Assembly (NCBI GenBank): GCA_017560425.1
Contig: JAFZEX010000029.1
Span: 1-61,303, forward strand
Length of the DNA stretch: 61,303 nucleotides
Source of the DNA: Alistipes sp.
GTDB taxonomy: Bacteria; Bacteroidota; Bacteroidia; Bacteroidales; Rikenellaceae
Reading direction: 5' to 3'
Positions within the stretch are counted from its first letter, which is position 1. The number at the start of each line of letters is the position of its first letter. Made by a program: the position numbers and the translations under genes. The notes under the pieces were generated by a model. That model had not been told where the DNA came from. It ran no database searches and saw nothing but the letters and a program-made list of their open reading frames with translations. Shown one piece after another: positions 16,647 through 60,806 of this stretch.

Positions 16647-19367
16647 ATGCGTCGTAAGAATTTAACAACACTCATCGTAATGATGCTTGTGGCAGGAGCA
16701 TTCCTCTATGCCGCAAGCGGAATGATGTTTGTGCGATACTCATATAACCCCGAAGCGCAAACTACCGAGACCCAAGCACCAACACCGAGCAGCCTGCCAA
16801 ATAGCGCTCCTGACAAGCGAATGGTGGATATGACTGCCGATGATAGCTACCTTATCGAGAAGGGCGACTCGACGATATTTATCCTTGTGGGCAACTTCGC
16901 AGCGCACCACAATGGCGCTGTGATTGTGGCAGATAGTGCTGTGCGCTACTCCAATCAGAGCTTCGTATGCTTTGGCAACGTGCTCATCAATCAAAACTCG
17001 ACATACATCTATGGCGAGCGTGCCGAGTATAACCGCAACAGCAACACAGCGAGAGTATTCTCGAAGCTCGTAAAGGTTATCGACGACGATGCTGTGATGT
17101 ACACCTACCAATGTAAGTTCAACACAGCCAAGTCGTTGGGCGAGTTTGGCGGTGGCTGCTACGTGAAGAAGAAGGACAACATCCTGGAGGCAGAGAAGGG
17201 CTTCTACAACACCAAGACCCACGAGCTCAAGGCAATCAACCGTGTGCAGATGCGCAACAATGACTATGAGGTGCTTAGCGACTCGGTGATCTTCAACACC
17301 AAGACCGAGGATGCTCAGTACTTCACAAACACCCATATTTGGAACAAGAACGACGAGTATCTAAACACCCAGGCGGGAACATATACCAAGAAGAAGGATC
17401 TACACCATCTAACACGTAGATCGTATCTCCTTCAGCCCGAGCGTGAGATATGGAGCGACACAATAATGTACTACCGCAACGATGGTCACATCATCGCTCG
17501 TGGCAACATTCAGATGGACGACAGCACTCAGAAAATTCTCGGCTTTGCCGACTATGCCGAGTGGTGGGATAAGCCAGGCAACGCCCTCTTCACACGTCGC
17601 CCATCGATGATTAACTACGACCCCGACCTCACCGACTCTATCTACCTATCGGCAGATACGCTATGGCTTTACACCATTGCTGTGAAGCCCCCTAAGGTAG
17701 AGCGACCAGCGAGCGACGAGAAGCCAAACACAGATGCCAAACCTGACAACGCAAAGGGTGCTGGCAACGAGAGAACAAGTGGCGAGCAGAAGGTAGATGG
17801 CAAGAATAGCGCAGAGAGCGCTATGCGCAAGGAGGCAAACAAGAACAAAAACGAGGAGAAAAACAAGAACAAGGATAAGAGCGCTAAGCGTAATGAGCCA
17901 CCTTCACGTGGTGGTGCGACAGAGCACGAGCGCAAGGGTGAGAAGCGTGAAGAGAGGCCCGAGAACAGAGAGCAGAAGCTAGCGCCACGAGGTGGCGAGA
18001 GGCAGAGCAACATAGATAGCCTCAGCGTCCCACAAAGAGATAGCATTGTTATAGATACGCTACCCGCAGCCGACAGCAACGTGGTGGTAAGCGAGGTGGT
18101 AGACACGACAAAGTATACTGCCAAGCAGCTACGCCGACGTGCTAAGCAGCAGCGCAAGGCAGAGCGTGAGGCAGTGAAGGCCCGTGAGCGCATGGTGCGT
18201 GACTCCCTCGACTCGCTCGAGCAGATTAAACTCGACTCGGTGCAGCACATACGTGACTCGTTGCTCAAGATGAAGATAGACACCATCATCGCCGAGCGCA
18301 TCGAGCGTAGCTCACGTCTTGCCGACGAGGAGAAGGAGCGCATGGAGCGCCTAAGAATAAAGGCTGAGCTACGTCGTCGCCAGAAGATTGACAAGGCGAA
18401 GGCTCGTGCCAAAAGACGTGGCAAGACATATACGGGCGAGGACTACGATCCTAACGACACAGCGTTCATGAACATCGCAAAGCCTACACGTCCAACACGT
18501 GATGACTCGTCACGCAGGGGCAACAACCCCGACGAGGGTGGCTCGGAGGCGGGCGACTCGACACTACGTGACACACTGCCCGTGGAGGTGGCATTCCCCG
18601 AGGATAGCACCTACAAGATGATTAAGGCGTATCGCAACGTGAAGATGTTTAGGGCGCAATCGCAGATGTCGTGCGACTCGCTAACATCGCTAAACACCGA
18701 CTCGATTATACGCATGTATAAGAACCCTGTGATGTGGAACGAGAACAACCAAATTCTCTCGGACTCGGCAATGATACACACCGAGCGCCAGCGAATTAAG
18801 AGAGCATACTTCTACGGCTCGCCAATCATGGGTATCGAGATCGACACAGCCTACTACAACCAGGTTAAGGGTAAGGAGATTGTCACCTTCTTTGAGAATG
18901 GTCAGGTGTATCGCAACGACGTGAATGGCAATGCACGGACGATATACTATCTTCAGGAGGAGGATGCCGACGATATTACTGCATTGATGTATATCGAGAG
19001 CTCGTCGATAACCTTCTACCTTGACGATGGCACGATAGACAAGATTTCGTACAAGCAGAATCCCGAGTATGTGCTCTACCCCATGGATATGGTTCCCGAG
19101 AGCCAGGAGCGCAAGTTGCAGGGATTTGAGTGGTATGCCGAGAAGCGCCCTACACGCAGCTCGATATGCAACCGACGCATACAGCGAAGCAACCGTGAGC
19201 GTGCAGCAGCCATTCGCAAGCCTACATTCCCAATCATGGAGCGCATCGACTATGACCGTCGCCGATTGGTTGAAAACAAGTCGTGGAAGGACCGCAAGGA
19301 CAAGCTTAAGAGCGATGTTGTCGAGTGGCGCAACTCACGAGAGTCATACAAAAAACGTAAACGATAG
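16647..19367 (+). CDS. OstA/LptA-like envelope protein with long charged insertion
   Basis: A 906-residue protein with an N-terminal signal anchor (residues 8-25). Residues ~60-360 form OstA_2/LptA-type beta repeats (for example SDSVIFNTKTEDAQYF and ARGNIQMDDST) as in lipopolysaccharide-transport jellyroll proteins; another such segment is at ~670-830. Between them lies a Lys/Arg/Glu-rich low-complexity and coiled-coil stretch (about 370-640), unusual in LptA or LptD. No C-terminal LptD barrel is evident. A role in LPS or outer-membrane biogenesis is inferred from fold and from the SurA neighbour. Confidence 0.75.
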   Translation: MRRKNLTTLIVMMLVAGAFLYAASGMMFVRYSYNPEAQTTETQAPTPSSLPNSAPDKRMVDMTADDSYLIEKGDSTIFILVGNFAAHHNGAVIVADSAVRYSNQSFVCFGNVLINQNSTYIYGERAEYNRNSNTARVFSKLVKVIDDDAVMYTYQCKFNTAKSLGEFGGGCYVKKKDNILEAEKGFYNTKTHELKAINRVQMRNNDYEVLSDSVIFNTKTEDAQYFTNTHIWNKNDEYLNTQAGTYTKKKDLHHLTRRSYLLQPEREIWSDTIMYYRNDGHIIARGNIQMDDSTQKILGFADYAEWWDKPGNALFTRRPSMINYDPDLTDSIYLSADTLWLYTIAVKPPKVERPASDEKPNTDAKPDNAKGAGNERTSGEQKVDGKNSAESAMRKEANKNKNEEKNKNKDKSAKRNEPPSRGGATEHERKGEKREERPENREQKLAPRGGERQSNIDSLSVPQRDSIVIDTLPAADSNVVVSEVVDTTKYTAKQLRRRAKQQRKAEREAVKARERMVRDSLDSLEQIKLDSVQHIRDSLLKMKIDTIIAERIERSSRLADEEKERMERLRIKAELRRRQKIDKAKARAKRRGKTYTGEDYDPNDTAFMNIAKPTRPTRDDSSRRGNNPDEGGSEAGDSTLRDTLPVEVAFPEDSTYKMIKAYRNVKMFRAQSQMSCDSLTSLNTDSIIRMYKNPVMWNENNQILSDSAMIHTERQRIKRAYFYGSPIMGIEIDTAYYNQVKGKEIVTFFENGQVYRNDVNGNARTIYYLQEEDADDITALMYIESSSITFYLDDGTIDKISYKQNPEYVLYPMDMVPESQERKLQGFEWYAEKRPTRSSICNRRIQRSNRERAAAIRKPTFPIMERIDYDRRRLVENKSWKDRKDKLKSDVVEWRNSRESYKKRKR

Positions 19368-54071: not shown

Positions 54072-54713
54072 TTATTCATCCATAACATATGTCTCATCAT
54101 AAATATCTTGCAAGTTCCTATTCTCACACAACCAATATCGGGTAGGCTGTATTGAATGAGTGATGCCGAGGATCTGTTTGGTAGCGTGAGTCAATGAGCA
54201 TTCTACACCCTGAAACATAATTCGCCTATCACCACATACTATAGCACTGATTGATGGATCATTAGCATAAATCAACTTTGTACCCTCTGGAATACCCATC
54301 TCTTTATAGTTCAATGGTGGTCGTCTGATTGATTTACTCTTATCAATAGCTACTTTGTCATCCAGAGTTAGGTCATTCTCTATTTCATTACTTATCTCTT
54401 GGGTGATATCTTTTCTATTAAACAACTCCAATATAGCGATAGCTTGGCGTGGGGATATTGAAAAAAACTCTCTATTTGCATTGACTCGGTTAGGAGCAAA
54501 CGCAGTGTGAAGGGCATTTTCAATTTTTACACAATCCGAAGAACTAACCTCACAAGCGTAGGCACATTCAAACGGCACAGGTACTCCGGTGCTGTACAAC
54601 TCTTTCATCCTTGCATCGACACTATCACGAGTTGTCATACCAATCTTAACAAGCCCCGGCATTGCAGAATTGGTCAAAACATACACGATACCTTTATTTT
54701 GGGGAGACTTCAT
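54072..54713 (-). CDS. GIY-YIG (T5orf172-type) protein with RAMA-like C-terminal domain
   Basis: A 213-residue protein. Residues ~8-85 form a GIY-YIG nuclease-like domain of the T5orf172/MUG113 type (GIVYVLTNSAMPGLVKIGMT, then KIENALHTAF and NREFF). Residues ~140-210 (GIPEGTKLIYANDPSISAIV, then RRIMFQGVECSLTHATKQILG) resemble the RAMA domain that accompanies modification methylases and nucleases. Such fusions occur in restriction or anti-mobile-element settings. The promoter is weak (TAACTTTA at 54771-54778). Confidence 0.72.
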   Translation of the reverse strand: MKSPQNKGIVYVLTNSAMPGLVKIGMTTRDSVDARMKELYSTGVPVPFECAYACEVSSSDCVKIENALHTAFAPNRVNANREFFSISPRQAIAILELFNRKDITQEISNEIENDLTLDDKVAIDKSKSIRRPPLNYKEMGIPEGTKLIYANDPSISAIVCGDRRIMFQGVECSLTHATKQILGITHSIQPTRYWLCENRNLQDIYDETYVMDE

Positions 54714-55329: not shown

Positions 55330-56143
55330 AATTCATCGTTTTTGATTTAAGAGTAGGTGGCTTTTCGTGGAAAGGTTTACGGATTTTACCGATTTGTTCT
55401 GTTTATGTAAAAAATGTGGCCTATGAAGTTTAAGCCACATTCCCGATTTGCTATATCACGCTGCATTCTTCCAAAGCTAATAGCGGGTGTATTCTGCAAT
55501 TTTCCAAAACAAAATACCCGATATTTTTACATTTTTCCAAGATTCTTTGTTTGGAGACTTTTAGTATGGAGCACTTCGCACTATGATAAAAAGTGCTTCA
55601 ATCGTGCGGAATCTATCAAAAATTCACACATTCTGCACGATTGCGAGCATATTGATTTATACACTTCTCCGATTTCCCGCAAAATTTTAATTGGGCAAAA
55701 CCTCCATTTCCCGCAAATTTTACACGAAGTTTATGCGGCATCCTATCAAATATAGTTTTCCCGAAGCAAGTATTCACGAGCTATACGGCACATTAATTTG
55801 GAGTAAAATACACCATTTCTTCACAAATCGACAGATTCATCAGTTTTGCACGCAAAATCGTTTCACTTCCATTTGACTTATTGCACTGATGGAATGTGCG
55901 TTACACACTAATCCGCTGTATACTTTCCAAAGAGGGTCAGATCATTACGGGCAACCCTTATTTTTATAAAAGCATCTACTGAATTACGGAGATTTGCTTA
56001 AATATCAATCACCTCACAAGTTGGCAATAAATATTATGTACATAAATTATGTTTCACATCTCCCCCCCCCTCCAAATATTAAAATCATTTCAGCAAAAAA
56101 TACTTATCTTTGCATTATACTAACCTTCTCTAATTATAATTGT
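55330..56143. other. AT-rich gene-free stretch with inverted repeats
   Basis: About 800 bp with no credible gene. It holds a hairpin AATGTGGC/GCCACATT (55413-55441), a GCACTT/AAGTGC pair (55571-55596) and a 14-bp inverted repeat CAATCGTGCGGAAT/ATTCTGCACGATTG (55599-55643, 13 pairs plus one G-U), and a C9 run at 56062-56070. Directly repeated TTTCCCGCAAA words occur near 55673 and 55710. It may be a regulatory region, a noncoding RNA, or a decayed mobile-element end. Confidence 0.45.
56105..56112 (+). promoter_or_regulatory. -7 promoter element of the FRG gene
   Basis: TATCTTTG matches TAnnTTTG, 31 bp upstream of the ATG at 56144; a C9 run lies about 35 bp further upstream. Confidence 0.65.
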
Positions 56144-57091
56144 ATGGCAACACTTCCATCTTATCACAGTTTTGAAGAAAAATACGAAATGTTTAAAACT
56201 CATAGTATAATTCGGACTAAACAGGAGTTAGACACTTGTATTGAGAGGCTTAAAGCACTAAAAGATAAACGTAAAGAATCTTATTTATTCAGAGGAGTAA
56301 ATGATGCTAGATACAAACTATATACATCATCACAGCGATTATGGATACAGAGAGACCTTAGCAAAAATAATATAGACTACCATCATCGCATATTAAGCAT
56401 GCTAGATTTCTGTAAGCGTGATAATAGCATCTTAAGCAATTACTTAAAACGGTTGGGAATTACCACTAATGATTGGCTTTATTTGTCTTTTTTGCAACAT
56501 TATGGAGCTGCATCCCCATTACTTGATTTTTCCAAAGAATTTCAAACGGCATTATTCTTCGCTTGTGACAATATCAACTTATATACAAATGATGAATTAG
56601 GAGATTATGTATCTATTTACTATTATAAGAAAGTAGATGTTGCGCATTATATAACTCCCTCGATTATTTCATTGGCTAGAAAACACGCACAAAACAGAAG
56701 TAAATTCCAACCACAAGATTTTTGGAGTAGTTTATCTTATGATAAAATTATGAGTGAAAAATCCAGTATAATAGTATCTGCATATTCACATGAGTCAAAA
56801 GTGAAAAATAACAATGGAGATGTTATCACCATATATACAGTCGCAAACTTAAATTCAACAGCCCAAGATGGAGAGTTTGTATGTAATGCAACTCCAGACA
56901 TCCCATTGGAGGAATTATGGAATATTAATGGTGTGAAATACATACATTGTGTTGATATTCACAAAAGTTTAATAGAATATATAATAAAACATTATTTAGG
57001 AGGGAATATCGAAATCTCAAAGAAACGGTATTATCCATCAGAAAGAGATATTGCCGACGATGCTCAATGGATGATGCTATCCAATATCTAA
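56144..57091 (+). CDS. FRG-domain protein
   Basis: A 315-residue protein with the FRG domain: YLFRGVNDARYKLYTSSQRLW (residues ~47-67), LSFLQHYGAASPLLDFSKEFQ (around 110-130), TALFFACD, and near the end NSTAQDGEF. The FRG domain has a conserved Arg-Gly/Asp-Phe pattern and is found in phage-defence and toxin-like proteins; its activity is not settled. The start at 56144 is chosen because the promoter sits 31 bp upstream; a longer frame starting at 55994 would cross the promoter and the C9 run. Confidence 0.8.
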   Translation: MATLPSYHSFEEKYEMFKTHSIIRTKQELDTCIERLKALKDKRKESYLFRGVNDARYKLYTSSQRLWIQRDLSKNNIDYHHRILSMLDFCKRDNSILSNYLKRLGITTNDWLYLSFLQHYGAASPLLDFSKEFQTALFFACDNINLYTNDELGDYVSIYYYKKVDVAHYITPSIISLARKHAQNRSKFQPQDFWSSLSYDKIMSEKSSIIVSAYSHESKVKNNNGDVITIYTVANLNSTAQDGEFVCNATPDIPLEELWNINGVKYIHCVDIHKSLIEYIIKHYLGGNIEISKKRYYPSERDIADDAQWMMLSNI

Positions 57092-57124: not shown

Positions 57125-57151
57125 TGCACGGCCTAATTTATAGACCGTGCA
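57125..57151. terminator. Bidirectional terminator between FRG and the ATPase-nuclease gene
   Basis: TGCACGG pairs with CCGTGCA around 13 bases. Confidence 0.7.
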
Positions 57152-57168
57152 AATCTATTTATACGACT

Positions 57169-59109
57169 TTAATTGAGTAGTTGTGTCGTTATCGCATTTG
57201 GGCCAGCTTGTGATTGCTTAGACAGAATTTGCAACCTCTCTTTCAGATATCTCATTTTATTACCCCATTCCACCTCTAATATATCGGACCATTTTCTAAC
57301 ATAAATCTTTATTTTGCCATCCTTTACATTATGGCATAGACCACGATCTTTCTCTCCATGATTTTTTGCAGAATCGATCTTGTCGGCAATGTGTTGATCA
57401 TAATCCTTGCCTATGAGATAAAATTCCCAATATTGGTTTTCTCCATTGCACATACTTTCGGCTTTTATACGCTCCATATAGCCCTCGATTTGATCATACT
57501 CTGCCTTCTTTAGAGTTTTGGAAGCCCTTTTAATTTCTACGATTATATTACGCTGCCTACACTCACCACACCATTCGCTTTTTGTTAAAAACAAATCAAC
57601 CTCACCTGTCGGACTCGTAGACAATTCAGGATCATCAATTCCCAGTATTTCCCTAGCATACGATAATAAAACATTTTTCAACGAGCCTTCAGTTGAACTA
57701 AAAAGTCTAAATTGCTCGCCAAATATCCAAAAATTTTCGTCAAGTATTTTTTGGATATGTTTTACTTCCAATGTTTCTTTCTCATATTCAGATATCAGAA
57801 GTTTAAGTTTATCAATTACCTCAAGACGATGATCTACCTCTTTGATTGTCTTAATGATATTCGATAAAGATGTCCTATTTAGTATATCTAATAAATCCTT
57901 TTTCTCATCCTCCGTCAATTCTTGCATTTGCTCCAATATAACTTGGATGATATTACTGTCTTGGGTAGAAAGAAGGCCAGCAAAAGTGGAGCATATAAAC
58001 TTCTTGTCAGAGGCACTCTTACCGGTAAATAGTGAGGGTGTAATTGTATAAACTGTTTTAATTAGCTCTTCATACGCTTCTGCATCATATATACCGTAAT
58101 CCTCTAATATTGGAATTATATTACTATCCTGCAAGTCCTGGTACAATTGATTTGACTGAGCTTTAAGATATGGTTTTCTTATATCTACTAATCTTGTTCT
58201 CAAGTAATTTATGATCTGATTTCGCGTCCGTCTTGCATGTTTAACATCAAACTCTAGTTCTGGGTTATCGCTACCTTCTTCCATAATAATGTCAGAACTA
58301 TTTGAAAACAATGAAGAAGAAATATATACAGAATGCCAAAAATCATCTCCCTTTTTATTTAGTCCAGTATTCCGTTTTGCGATCTCCCGTCCAGTTCCAT
58401 CGATAAAATAAAACTTTGAAAATTCTGATGGTTTCTGATTCCAAACAATAATTCTTGCATAAAAATCACTTTCAAATCTGCCTCTAATTTCGTCAGATAG
58501 ATCGGCATAATGAATTTCAATAGATTCTTTGATCAAAGAGCCTGCATCTAATAGTGTGTCATTTATGTAAATCTTGAAATTATTATTTTCAAGTAATAGC
58601 CATCCAAATTCAAGCAGAATACTTAATGGTAAATCGCAAGATAAAAGAGTATCCGAGAAAGCTGTTGTAATATTAATAAAACAAACTTCAGTACCATTGA
58701 TCTCTCTATCACTATTATTCTTTTGTATCTCGGTATTATGGTTTAAAATCAATTGTTTGGATTTACTAAACACGCACAATTGTTCAGCGATCCATATAAA
58801 CGCATATCTACCTCTACCATAGTGACCTTTTGGGAATGTGTGATCAGCTCTTGGTTGCTTTACAGAAGACATGAAGTTGTTAGTTGTTGCATCATCATCA
58901 AAATCCCAACCATCGCCATTATCAGTCAATTTAACATTGCATGCCATGCCAATCCCTTCTGCCGGGATATCAAAACTCAATTTAACTTCTGTCGCATTTG
59001 CATCAAAAGAATTCCAAATATATTCAAAAAGACAATCGAGAGGCTTGTTCTTATATGAGGATAATTCCGTCCTAATAGATTGGGCGTTAATTTTAAGGTT
59101 AGTGCTCAT
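57169..59109 (-). CDS. GHKL/MORC-like ATPase fused to a Shedu-like nuclease domain
   Basis: A 646-residue fusion. The N-terminus is a Bergerat-fold ATPase: EYIWNSFDANAT (29-40, with the N-box Glu29 and Asn33), DNGDG (63-67) and KGHYGRGRYAF (94-104). A helical middle leads to a C-terminal domain like Shedu (DUF4263): DENFWIFGEQFRL (~457-469), then GEVDLFL (Asp505) and IIVEIKRASK (Glu525, Lys527), the PD-(D/E)xK pattern. It probably uses ATP binding to gate DNA cleavage. It starts 12 bp after hipA, so it belongs to the hipBA operon. MutL/MORC homologues in restriction systems are known; this association with HipBA is not known to me. Confidence 0.78.
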   Translation of the reverse strand: MSTNLKINAQSIRTELSSYKNKPLDCLFEYIWNSFDANATEVKLSFDIPAEGIGMACNVKLTDNGDGWDFDDDATTNNFMSSVKQPRADHTFPKGHYGRGRYAFIWIAEQLCVFSKSKQLILNHNTEIQKNNSDREINGTEVCFINITTAFSDTLLSCDLPLSILLEFGWLLLENNNFKIYINDTLLDAGSLIKESIEIHYADLSDEIRGRFESDFYARIIVWNQKPSEFSKFYFIDGTGREIAKRNTGLNKKGDDFWHSVYISSSLFSNSSDIIMEEGSDNPELEFDVKHARRTRNQIINYLRTRLVDIRKPYLKAQSNQLYQDLQDSNIIPILEDYGIYDAEAYEELIKTVYTITPSLFTGKSASDKKFICSTFAGLLSTQDSNIIQVILEQMQELTEDEKKDLLDILNRTSLSNIIKTIKEVDHRLEVIDKLKLLISEYEKETLEVKHIQKILDENFWIFGEQFRLFSSTEGSLKNVLLSYAREILGIDDPELSTSPTGEVDLFLTKSEWCGECRQRNIIVEIKRASKTLKKAEYDQIEGYMERIKAESMCNGENQYWEFYLIGKDYDQHIADKIDSAKNHGEKDRGLCHNVKDGKIKIYVRKWSDILEVEWGNKMRYLKERLQILSKQSQAGPNAITTQLLN

Positions 59110-59121
59110 GGTTTATAGGTT

Positions 59122-60402
59122 TTATATATGTAGAAGCATATTATCTTTGATATCATCAATCAGGCTTTGTGGCACATCACTCGCTTTTGCCATTGTTGAC
59201 CATTGTGAAGCAATCTCGCACACCTCATCGATTATTAGCGAGGCATTCTTTATGTTGTTTTTTGCGCCACATTCGAGAAGGTCTTTTCGAGTAATGTCGT
59301 CAAATTTTCCATTGATAGACATCTGGTGAGTTGCAGTCCAACCGCCATTAGGATTATATGAATATCCCATATCATAGGCTGGTGAGAGTCGCCAAACACC
59401 ATCTTCCCCCATCAAGAAGGATATATTTTTTGTATGATCATCTTGATTTCGCACAATCACATTAAAAACCATTCTGCGGAACATCTCCTGCGCTTGCGAA
59501 TAAGGCAGTTTGAGAGCTCGCATTACATTGAATGCTTGTTCATATGAGTATGCACGATGCAGGCGGTAGTCGTAATGTGCAATACCACACAGCGTCTGCA
59601 TATGAACCTTTTTGCCATTCTCACGGTCGAAACGTTTAGTAAGGAAATGTGCTCTACCATTCTCCTCTATAAGTGAGCATTCAGACATATCTATTCCACA
59701 AGCCTTAACCAACTTATAGAACGAGTACTCCAAACGACCATAATTCTCAGTCTCACGGAATCCAGTTGTTGCCGAGACGCCATCTAATTTAATAATGTAG
59801 TAATCAAAACCATCAGGCACATCAGTTTGCCCGGAGCGAACCTCGCCAGTCGTTTTATTGTACGCTATTATAGCCTTTGCTCTTTGACCTCCGGCAGATG
59901 TTCCCAATTGGAGGATTTCTGCAATGGCAGCTTTTTTGTCGTCGTTGATATTGACGCCAAAATTCTCTTTATTCAATAAAGCCTCTCGTGCAACTTCAAC
60001 CAGTGAGTCAATGGCAATCTTTGAGTCCAGGTTGTAATCAACATCTATTGCAGGCTCAAATTCTAATGCTCCCATACAGCGTTTTCCTAAGAAACATAGA
60101 GTCTCCACGATGTTACTACTTGTACGCCCCGTTAGAGTAAGCCACCTATCAAATAAGGCACGACCATAGGTGTCAGGCAATGAATCAGCAAGTAGTCCCG
60201 GAAGTCCCTTAAAGGTCTCTCGCCCAATGTCTCCAAACGAGTAGGTTCGACCGGACTGTACTGGCATCATCAGAGGGGACGGTTCCAGCCCTTGCCCTAT
60301 AAAATCTTTGTTGTACTCAAATTGTACAATGTCATAACGACTATCCCAACGGAATACACCTATCGGGTTGCCAAACATTTTTACTATCGCAACATCTACC
60401 AT
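59122..60402 (-). CDS. hipA: HipA-family serine/threonine kinase toxin
   Basis: A 426-residue HipA kinase. The N-terminal domain (FGNPIGVFRWDSRYDIVQFEY), the Gly-rich ATP loop LGTSAGGQRAKAII (residues ~168-181), catalytic NQDDHTKNISFLM (near residue 318) and metal-binding LSPAYDM are all intact, so kinase activity is expected. E. coli HipA phosphorylates glutamyl-tRNA synthetase; the target here is unknown. Its start overlaps hipB by 7 bp and its stop is 12 bp before the ATPase-nuclease gene. Confidence 0.93.
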   Translation of the reverse strand: MVDVAIVKMFGNPIGVFRWDSRYDIVQFEYNKDFIGQGLEPSPLMMPVQSGRTYSFGDIGRETFKGLPGLLADSLPDTYGRALFDRWLTLTGRTSSNIVETLCFLGKRCMGALEFEPAIDVDYNLDSKIAIDSLVEVAREALLNKENFGVNINDDKKAAIAEILQLGTSAGGQRAKAIIAYNKTTGEVRSGQTDVPDGFDYYIIKLDGVSATTGFRETENYGRLEYSFYKLVKACGIDMSECSLIEENGRAHFLTKRFDRENGKKVHMQTLCGIAHYDYRLHRAYSYEQAFNVMRALKLPYSQAQEMFRRMVFNVIVRNQDDHTKNISFLMGEDGVWRLSPAYDMGYSYNPNGGWTATHQMSINGKFDDITRKDLLECGAKNNIKNASLIIDEVCEIASQWSTMAKASDVPQSLIDDIKDNMLLHI

Positions 60403-60743
60403 TCTGATTCCTCCTTTTTGTTAGCATTCATTTTACCTACGGCTCGCTTGCGTGTTGCCTTTTTGGCTGAGTTTACTAACTTGTAATATTCACTTGGGCT
60501 TAACGACTCTTCATCAACCATCGACTGGAATATATCCAATTTGCCTAATACTCGCAGCACTCGTAATAACGAATCAAATGACTTTATCTCCCCGCTCTCT
60601 ATCTTTTTCACGGAAGATAGTGATATATTGGCAGATATAGCAAGGCTCTCCTGTGTGATATTTTGTTTCAGACGAGTACCCTTAATCTTGGCACCAAGTT
60701 TGGCGAGGATTGTCGCATCTGACAACATATAAATATTCTCCAT
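60396..60743 (-). CDS. hipB: HipB-like XRE-family antitoxin
   Basis: A 115-residue DNA-binding protein with an XRE helix-turn-helix: TRLKQNITQESLAISANISL and SSVKKIESGEIKSFDSLLRVL. The Lys/Arg-rich C-terminal tail (ATRKRAVGKMNANKKEESEW) is longer than the minimal HTH. It likely represses the operon through the AACTATTA sites over its promoter and binds HipA. Start is ATG 60743 (a second Met is at codon 6). Confidence 0.88.
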   Translation of the reverse strand: MENIYMLSDATILAKLGAKIKGTRLKQNITQESLAISANISLSSVKKIESGEIKSFDSLLRVLRVLGKLDIFQSMVDEESLSPSEYYKLVNSAKKATRKRAVGKMNANKKEESEW

Positions 60744-60758
60744 ACGGCTTTATTTAGA

Positions 60759-60806
60759 ACTATTACAGTGCAAATATAGTTATAATAGTTTAATTTGCAA
60801 CTATTA
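60759..60806 (-). promoter_or_regulatory. hipBA promoter with repeated AACTATTA operator sites
   Basis: The reverse-strand -7 element TATATTTG is at 60771-60778 with TTG 19 bp upstream (60798-60800). Three copies of AACTATTA surround it: 60759-60766, 60783-60790 (inverted, TAATAGTT) and 60799-60806. Spacing 16 and 8 bp makes paired half-sites over the promoter, as expected for HipB autoregulation. Confidence 0.65.

What the first reader, a model, noticed from the sequence alone, without database searches (positions are those of the whole stretch)
57169..60743. HipBA toxin-antitoxin operon carrying a GHKL ATPase-Shedu nuclease fusion
hipB, hipA and a 646-residue ATPase-nuclease follow one another with 7-bp overlap and 12-bp spacing, so they form one transcript. 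HipA keeps its kinase residues; the third protein keeps the GHKL motifs (Glu29, Asn33, DNGDG) and a Shedu-like PD-(D/E)xK site (Asp505, Glu525, Lys527). MORC/MutL-like ATPases in restriction systems and Shedu nucleases in phage defence are known, but I do not know of this three-gene unit. It could be a defence system in which HipA phosphorylation controls the nuclease, or vice versa.
Basis: partly seen in the sequence, partly recalled or inferred. Interest (0 to 1): 0.82.

Follow-up and report, generated by a model that had tools for sequence, protein, structure and literature searches.

The report
Defence nuclease riding in toxin-antitoxin operon
A known kind of predicted anti-phage ATPase-nuclease gene has been slotted between a bacterial toxin gene and that toxin operon's transcription terminator, and related species carry other genes (some of them defence genes) or nothing in such slots, which suggests that toxin-antitoxin operons can serve as exchangeable docking sites for defence genes.

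Summary
hipB, hipA and a 646-aa gene lie head to tail on the minus strand (7-bp overlap, 12-bp spacer). The third protein is a GHKL ATPase joined to a PD-(D/E)xK nuclease with intact motifs. That fusion is not new: it is the paraMORC3 type described in 2008, and a protein of the same architecture, VcSduA, was shown in 2025 to protect against phage. hipBA and the fusion are not a conserved unit: 2 of 268 genomes of the family carry it, and 1 of 80 homologue loci from a broad genome collection has hipA nearby. The nearest relatives sit in restriction-modification operons.

What is unusual is how the gene sits. In a related species hipBA is followed directly by a terminator-like hairpin. In the window the same element follows the nuclease gene, so the gene was slotted between toxin and terminator. 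In the same genus a second toxin-antitoxin operon (AbiE) shows the same design at one chromosomal site: empty, with a distant member of the nuclease family, or with a phosphoesterase/STAND gene. AbiE-nuclease pairs occur in two further genomes. Best reading: an independent defence nuclease carried as exchangeable cargo of a toxin-antitoxin operon, probably co-regulated by HipB. Phage defence, co-transcription and HipB control are inferred, not shown.

The parts
60396..60743 (-). hipB: 115-aa Cro/C1-type HTH antitoxin and likely autorepressor
   Evidence: Pfam HTH_3 7.8e-7, NCBIfam couple_hipB 1.1e-9, below its cut-off
59122..60402 (-). hipA: 426-aa HipA-family kinase toxin
   Evidence: HipA_C 1.4e-50 and Couple_hipA 2.7e-14; NQDDHTKN and SPAYDM align with NEDMHLKN and SPAYDL of solved HipT 8ezr
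57169..59109 (-). 646-aa GHKL ATPase / PD-(D/E)xK nuclease, paraMORC3 type
58708..59031 (-). GHKL ATPase domain (residues 27-134): E29, N33, DNGDG 63-67, glycine-rich lid G95/G98/G100
   Evidence: HATPase_c_3 1.3e-11; invariant columns; family profile matches MLH1/PMS1/MutL structures, best 1.4e-8
57478..57768 (-). nuclease motif region (residues 448-544): E448, W461-IFGE465, D505, E525-x-K527, Q540
   Evidence: invariant or nearly invariant columns; HSDR_N_2 in 49 of 73 members; in-register, weak match to Shedu L214
59110..59121 (-). 12-bp spacer between hipA stop and nuclease start, no terminator found in it
60783..60806 (-). palindrome TAATAGTT-N8-AACTATTA upstream of hipB, candidate HipB operator (with a half site TAATAGTT at 60758-60765)
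   Evidence: alignment of 4 loci; function inferred
57125..57151 (-). intrinsic-terminator-like hairpin after the nuclease gene; its counterpart lies directly after hipA in G094
   Evidence: local score 46; 0 of 5000 mononucleotide shuffles reach it

Best explanation
The third gene is an independent paraMORC3-type defence nuclease (GHKL ATPase plus Shedu-like PD-(D/E)xK nuclease) carried as exchangeable cargo at the end of a mobile hipBA operon. It was inserted between the hipA stop codon and the operon's terminator, so it is probably transcribed from the hipB promoter under HipB/HipA autoregulation and is kept in the genome partly because the toxin-antitoxin pair resists loss. The ATPase probably closes as an ATP-driven dimer clamp on DNA and licenses the C-terminal nuclease to cut phage or other foreign DNA. 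Shown here by sequence comparison: gene order, motifs, position before the terminator-like hairpin, recent transfer between species, and the same slot design in AbiE operons of the same genus. Inferred: insertion rather than loss, co-transcription, HipB control, phage defence, clamp mechanism, stabilisation.
For: (1) Empty-site comparison: in G094 hipA (89% identical) is followed at once by ATAGATTTGCAC plus a hairpin and T-run; in the window the same element follows the nuclease gene. G026 and G094 share homologous DNA on both sides (78% upstream through hipA, 71% at the next gene downstream), yet G094 has nothing after hipA and G026 has the nuclease plus a 346-aa gene. (2) Mobility: hipBA plus nuclease is about 95% identical between G000 and G026, with tracts of 0/500 and 5/1400 differences, while matches for the first 14 kb of the window in G026, G030 and G094 are mostly 66-78%. 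(3) Parallel case: AbiE operon at one chromosomal site, empty in G094 and G063/G051, with a family member in G057, with a 1019-aa Metallophos/nSTAND gene in G025; flank homology resumes at the terminator-like hairpin. (4) AbiEii-nuclease pairs in two further genomes: L026, L144. (5) Tree: the window gene nests in a clade of 8 (support 1.0); besides it and L018, 5 of the 6 members lie beside restriction-modification genes (contexts), so its partner changed. (6) Operator-like palindrome conserved in 4 loci but for outer bases. (7) VcSduA, same architecture, loses phage protection when the ATPase Glu or nuclease Lys is mutated (PMC12137116, passages seen).
Against: No expression, toxicity or phage data exist for this locus. 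Co-transcription rests on spacing and on the absence of a terminator between hipA and the nuclease gene; the promoter scan found no excess over shuffles (16 sites against a mean of 16.6) and a weak terminator-like site lies inside hipA at 59814-59833. Only two species carry hipBA plus nuclease. VcSduA itself was not compared by sequence. Insertion rather than loss is inferred from parsimony. The genomes are draft assemblies and the window's hipBA lies 560 bp from its contig end. The G025 hairpin folds weakly and lies about 633 bp after the cargo gene. Several slot genes (280-aa, 204-aa, 295-aa, 346-aa) match no Pfam or PADLOC family, and 11 of 16 readable hipA loci and 5 of 12 readable AbiE loci have no close third gene.
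Confidence: 0.6

Rival explanations
1. Dedicated three-gene defence system: HipA phosphorylates the ATPase-nuclease (or the nuclease triggers HipA), so the unit works only as a whole.
For: Tight spacing and an unbroken block in two species; all three genes under purifying selection.
Against: None of 14 other readable hipA loci is followed by the nuclease and those genomes have no homologue at E <= 0.001; 79 of 80 homologue loci show no hipA in the fetched flanks; relatives are paired with restriction-modification, AbiE, BREX or other genes.
Confidence: 0.07
2. Ordinary defence-island clustering: the gene landed next to hipBA by chance and the order has no regulatory or stabilising meaning.
For: The window end also holds FRG (PDC-S15) and T5orf172 (PDC-S57) candidate defence genes; that defence genes cluster is established knowledge.
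Against: The terminator-like hairpin stays behind the cargo in both hipBA and AbiE, 12-bp spacing, and different genes occur in one AbiE slot.
Confidence: 0.2
3. Orphan restriction subunit: the protein acts with a restriction-modification system elsewhere in the genome, as its nearest relatives may do with the hsd or mod genes beside them.
For: 5 of the 6 other members of its clade lie beside type I or type III restriction-modification genes; NCBIfam BbrUII/HgiDII restriction enzyme family matches residues 298-573 at 2.8e-8, far below its cut-off.
Against: 52 of 85 homologue loci examined have no close upstream same-strand gene at all (downstream genes not counted); VcSduA, of the same architecture, is described as independent of its neighbour system (PMC12137116).
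Confidence: 0.13

Closest known systems
paraMORC3 family (Iyer, Abhiman, Aravind 2008, PMC2292703; parts 1-2 of 4 read)
   Same: N-terminal GHKL ATPase, C-terminal RE-fold nuclease with E-D-ExK (here E448/E465, D505, E525-x-K527); sporadic spread; in restriction-modification operons or standing alone
   Different: The two parts read mention no toxin-antitoxin operon context
VcSduA, GHKL-type Shedu of V. cholerae (PMC12137116, passages seen)
   Same: GHKL plus PD-(D/E)xK fusion with catalytic Glu near position 27-29 and nuclease Lys in the C-terminal domain
   Different: Carried on an island variant; the main text does not contain the word HipA; direct sequence comparison not made here
Shedu SduA (DUF4263/SduA_C)
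   Same: Motif order WIFG, D, ExK is in register with a Shedu protein from the same genus (hhalign E 0.0023, probability 12.7%)
   Different: Window protein does not reach the SduA_C profile; 1 of 73 relatives does
Type I-embedded systems such as TgvAB (PMC12409362, passages seen)
   Same: Defence genes embedded in the operon of another defence system
   Different: There the carrier is a restriction-modification operon; here a toxin-antitoxin operon
HipBST tripartite toxin-antitoxin (PMC10627512, search listing with start of abstract only)
   Same: Three-gene hip locus
   Different: HipS is recalled to be part of the antitoxin mechanism; here the third gene is an unrelated ATPase-nuclease

Membership tests
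paraMORC3 | N-terminal GHKL ATPase with intact ATP-binding motifs | tested here: met
   HATPase_c_3 in 73 of 73 members; E29, N33, D63, G65, G67, G95, G98 invariant
paraMORC3 | C-terminal RE-fold domain with E-D-ExK | tested here: met
   E448 and E465, D505, E525-x-K527 conserved; HSDR_N_2 in 49 of 73 at E <= 0.01, below cut-off in the window protein itself; fold not modelled
paraMORC3 | S5-fold middle domain | not testable with these tools
Shedu (DUF4263/SduA_C) | match to the SduA_C profile | tested here: not met
   not among the Pfam families listed for the window protein at E <= 1; PADLOC SduA E 0.037 outside the catalytic part; 1 of 73 relatives at 7.4e-4
Shedu (DUF4263/SduA_C) | shared catalytic motif order | tested here: inconclusive
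   in-register hhalign match to L214, E 0.0023, probability 12.7%; other comparisons: second Shedu L215 0.18, HSDR_N protein 0.024 out of register, HipA 0.82
hipBA type II toxin-antitoxin | HTH antitoxin gene overlapping upstream of a HipA kinase gene with catalytic motifs | tested here: met
hipBA type II toxin-antitoxin | operator of the half-site-N8-half-site type upstream (E. coli TATCC-N8-GGATA, recalled) | tested here: inconclusive
   TAATAGTT-N8-AACTATTA in G000 and G026, one outer base changed in G030 and in G094; no binding test
hipBA type II toxin-antitoxin | toxicity of HipA neutralised by HipB | not testable with these tools
   needs an experiment
BbrUII/HgiDII restriction enzyme family | NCBIfam NF050001 score over cut-off | tested here: not met
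   32.8 bits against cut-off 550

The most novel reading that the evidence does not exclude
Toxin-antitoxin operons (HipBA and AbiE, perhaps more) contain a swappable slot between toxin gene and terminator into which single defence genes (paraMORC3 nuclease, AbiH, Metallophos/nSTAND) are exchanged by recombination in the conserved toxin 3' end and the downstream flank; the antitoxin's autorepression then makes the cargo inducible when the antitoxin is lost during infection, and the toxin-antitoxin pair makes the cargo addictive.
Probability: 0.3. Interest if true: 0.75.

Novelty: new variant of a known kind. Interest (0 to 1): 0.52.

Why it matters
Defence genes are known to cluster and to be embedded in restriction-modification operons. 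If toxin-antitoxin operons are also docking sites, genes behind toxins become a discovery handle for new defence genes (several slot genes here have no known family). It would also give a testable way in which a stress-released repressor switches on a nuclease only when needed. The individual proteins are of known kinds.

Tried and rejected
Rejected: HipA-nuclease obligate unit (lack of recurrence). Rejected: strict label Shedu for the protein (profile not met). Viral contigs: 4 pattern matches, none a relative. Phage records: 2, both Pasteurella phages, 71% and 69% of the query covered. Plasmids: 37 records with a match, 2 with at least 80% of the query in one place; the neighbourhoods of 6 of the 37 were read and none shows hipA (also by tblastn), though the plasmid gene table is incomplete. 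The first solved-structure search gave only a spurious oxidoreductase match; the family profile found MutL/MLH1-type and HSP90-type structures for the ATPase half (60 of 161 matches shown) and the C-terminal profile no nuclease structure (2 matches, best E 0.064). A gene at window 16647-19367 was uninformative for chromosome identity, so the first 14 kb were used. The profile searches of order and phylum (393 and 395 genomes) report 235 and 171 genomes, but most matches listed cover the ATPase domain alone, so those tallies are not used as prevalence of the fusion; 12 of the longest matches were read for context, none with hipA.

Rows dropped before counts: from the neighbour list L028, L095 and window (each stands for a locus or a near-identical unit kept under another id: L003, L014, L018) and L078, L081 (same lengths and neighbours as L076), which leaves 85 loci. 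From alignment A2: L060, L078 and L081 as near-duplicates judged by lengths and neighbours (not by alignment), and L037, L064, L067, L088 and L091 as shorter than 625 aa, which leaves 72 of 80 plus the window. L022 gives no restriction-modification context; its contig is 6.7 kb. The hipA locus of G070 is cut inside hipA and is not counted as readable; the AbiE locus of G172 is cut at the stop.

Literature: absence claims rest on 10 searches of an open-licence library, of which only the listed papers (3 to 15 per search, often fewer than the hits) were seen as titles and starts of abstracts; passages or parts were read in three papers. Gu et al. 2025 on Shedu types is not held.
Full report
Observation. 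HipB is an HTH_3 protein. HipA matches HipA_C over the full model (1.4e-50) and Couple_hipA, and its NQDDHTKN and SPAYDM motifs align with NEDMHLKN and SPAYDL of the solved HipT kinase 8ezr. The third protein has HATPase_c_3 at residues 27-134 (1.3e-11).

Nature of the third protein. In an alignment of 73 sequences (A2) E29, N33, D63, G65, G67, G95, G98, G100 and E525, K527, Q540 are invariant and D505 is at least 90% conserved. Pfam HSDR_N_2, a PD-(D/E)xK family, matches 49 of 73 members at E <= 0.01 and the window protein at 0.0049, below the curated cut-off; SduA_C matches 1 of 73. A profile of the whole family finds MLH1 and PMS1 (1.4e-8, 2.2e-8) in the structure database; the 60 matches shown of 161 lie in the ATPase half. 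A profile of the C-terminal part (42 sequences, A3) finds nothing significant there. SduA_C occurs in 2 of 200 genomes of the family; the C-terminal profile aligns in register with one of these, L214, so that WIFG, D and ExK fall together (hhalign E 0.0023, probability only 12.7%). The other comparisons gave 0.18 (the second Shedu protein, L215), 0.024 (an HSDR_N protein, out of register) and 0.82 (HipA). So the architecture is paraMORC3 as described by Iyer et al. 2008 (E-D-ExK), and it resembles VcSduA, a GHKL-DUF4263 protein whose phage protection is lost in E27A and K557A mutants (PMC12137116, passages). The fusion is therefore already known.

Is it a conserved unit with hipBA? No. In 268 genomes of the family a homologue is found in 5: full-length in G000, G026, G195 and G057, partial in G206. 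Of the four with full-length copies, only G000 and G026 have a hipA relative at all (G206 was not in that search). Conversely hipA relatives occur in 52 of 268 genomes. I fetched 15 further hipA loci. Of these, 14 can be read past hipA and none is followed by the nuclease; none of the genomes concerned has a homologue of it at E <= 0.001.

Who are its relatives' neighbours? Of 85 loci examined (after dropping duplicates), 33 have one or two upstream same-strand genes of at least 80 aa within 130 bp, 52 genes in all; 35 of the 52 were scanned with Pfam. They include type I genes (hsdM/hsdS: L019, L020, L021, L024, L025; hsdR-like: L037, L043, L053, L071), type III genes (L023, L048), another N6_N4 methylase (L038), BREX brxL (L034), AIPR plus an AspBHI-type enzyme (L041), and AbiEii toxin genes (L014, L026); some are unrelated to defence (L063 NUDIX, L065 MFS, L070 sulfatase, L093 glycosyltransferase). 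L019 and L021 were assigned by similarity to L020. In the tree (82 sequences) the window gene lies in a clade of 8 with support 1.0: itself, L018, five members beside restriction-modification genes (L019, L020, L021, L023, L024) and L022, whose context is unclear. The likely history is recruitment from a restriction-modification setting into a hipBA operon. Of the AbiE-linked members, L026 stands apart; L095 (=L014) and L144 fall in one clade of six with four members not paired with AbiE as far as seen, so AbiE was joined two or three times.

How it got there. In G094 hipBA (hipA 89% identical) is followed directly by ATAGATTTGCAC and a hairpin with a T-run. In the window hipA is followed by 12 bp and the nuclease gene, and the same ATAGATTTGCAC-hairpin-T element follows the nuclease stop (local alignment score 46; 0 of 5000 mononucleotide shuffles reach it, best of 2000 further shuffles 36). 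The window's hairpin is at 57125-57151. G026 and G094 share homologous DNA on both sides of the slot (78% over 2382 bp through hipA, 71% over 390 bp downstream), so the same site is empty in one and filled in the other. G030 (hipA 96% identical) is also empty; its homology to the window ends 33 bp before the hipA stop, which points to exchange within the toxin's 3' end. Between G000 and G026 the unit is about 95% identical with tracts of 0/500 (59504-60003) and 5/1400 (57704-59103) differences and a more divergent nuclease 3' end (43/500 at 57204-57703). The matches found for the first 14 kb of the window in G026, G030 and G094 are mostly 66-78% identical, with a few short stretches at 80-91%. 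This is recent transfer with mosaic recombination. GC is 0.346 for the nuclease gene, 0.428 for hipA and 0.455 for the window.

A second slot of the same design. In G057 the homologue (27-30% identical to the window's) follows an AbiE pair by 115 bp. AbiEii is a Pfam match; the 223-aa gene before it matched no family at E <= 0.001 and is called AbiEi by position. AbiEii occurs in 48 of 268 genomes, and I fetched 12 more AbiE loci from among its better-scoring rows. Of 13 loci with G057, 7 have a same-strand gene within 165 bp: nuclease (G057), AbiH (G056, 11 bp), a 1019-aa Metallophos/nSTAND protein (G025, 133 bp; PADLOC candidate PDC-S60), a 280-aa protein (G038, and cut in G169) and a 204-aa protein (G229, G147). 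Five have none: G063 and G051 (identical over 4560 bp), G094, and G065 and G030, whose contigs end 609 and 328 bp after the stop. One is cut at the stop (G172). The 280- and 204-aa proteins match no family. Four of the sites share the same downstream flank (G094, G063/G051, G057, G025; 82-91% identical over 619-804 bp in the comparisons that involve a filled site). The flank homology restarts at a terminator-like hairpin, 78 bp after the AbiEii stop in the empty G094 and about 25 bp after the nuclease stop in G057. In G025 about 633 bp, with a 114-aa ORF, lie between the 1019-aa gene and the resumed flank, and its hairpin folds weakly (-7.4 kcal/mol against about -14 in the other three). Two further AbiEii-nuclease pairs lie outside the family: L026 (a Saccharibacteria record, with a DUF6088 gene before AbiEii) and L144 (G326, same order; AbiEii overlapping the nuclease by 4 bp, the gene before it without a Pfam match).

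The hipBA slot varies too, but less clearly. Of 16 readable hipA loci (14 fetched, window and G026), 5 have a same-strand gene of at least 200 aa within 130 bp: window and G026 (nuclease; G026 adds a 346-aa gene with no Pfam or PADLOC match), G002 (295-aa, no match, then AbiH 2.7e-50), a distant hipA of G132 (253-aa phosphoesterase) and G211 (224-aa, cut).

Mechanism. A palindrome TAATAGTT-N8-AACTATTA at 60783-60806 lies upstream of hipB; it is the same in G000 and G026 and has one outer base changed in G030 and in G094. E. coli HipB operators have the same half-site-N8-half-site layout (recalled, no call). The scan found no terminator between hipA and the nuclease gene, one weak terminator-like site inside hipA, and no promoter excess over shuffles. 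The simplest reading is one autoregulated transcript in which the nuclease is expressed when HipB repression is relieved. That the nuclease cuts phage DNA after ATP-driven dimerisation is inferred from VcSduA and from GHKL biology. No regulation or phosphorylation between HipA and the nuclease is indicated by any result here.

Novelty. The parts are known. Ten searches of an open-licence library, seen as listings, showed no report of a paraMORC3 gene in a toxin-antitoxin operon or of a defence-gene slot between a toxin gene and its terminator; that library lacks most subscription papers. Restriction-modification operons with embedded defence genes are known (PMC12409362, passages). I rate it a new variant of a known kind.

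Noticed in passing
window 55994-57091 (+): FRG-domain protein (Pfam 3.4e-14) matching PADLOC candidate PDC-S15 at 2.3e-67, convergent with the nuclease gene.
   Followed up: no
window 54072-54713 (-): T5orf172/GIY-YIG-like protein matching PADLOC candidate PDC-S57 at 2e-77; a second candidate defence gene at the same contig end.
   Followed up: no
window 57204-57703: This part of the nuclease gene differs at 43 of 500 sites between G000 and G026 while the preceding 1.4 kb differs at 5: a recombination break near residue 469, inside the nuclease part, after W461-E465 and before D505.
   Followed up: partly
L013 1033-1392, L127 10072-10332, L210 7208-7552: Short proteins beginning MRRSKFRRP/MRKSKFRRP lie beside the hipBA cassette (G026, G094) and in an AbiE slot (G025); a related ORF at L013 589-900 suggests more than one copy in G026. 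No Pfam match for the L013 copy. They could mark a mobile unit.
   Followed up: partly
L013 5471-6511: 346-aa protein following the nuclease in G026, no Pfam or PADLOC match; a second cargo gene of unknown kind.
   Followed up: partly
L203 287-1129, L211 3859-4473, L133 7360-8247: Unannotated proteins in the slots behind AbiEii or HipA, no Pfam or PADLOC match; candidates for unknown defence genes.
   Followed up: partly
L012 4461-6419: A homologue of the nuclease lies among tail genes of Pasteurella phage Pmp14 (24.7% identity over 71% of the query), so at least one phage carries it.
   Followed up: no
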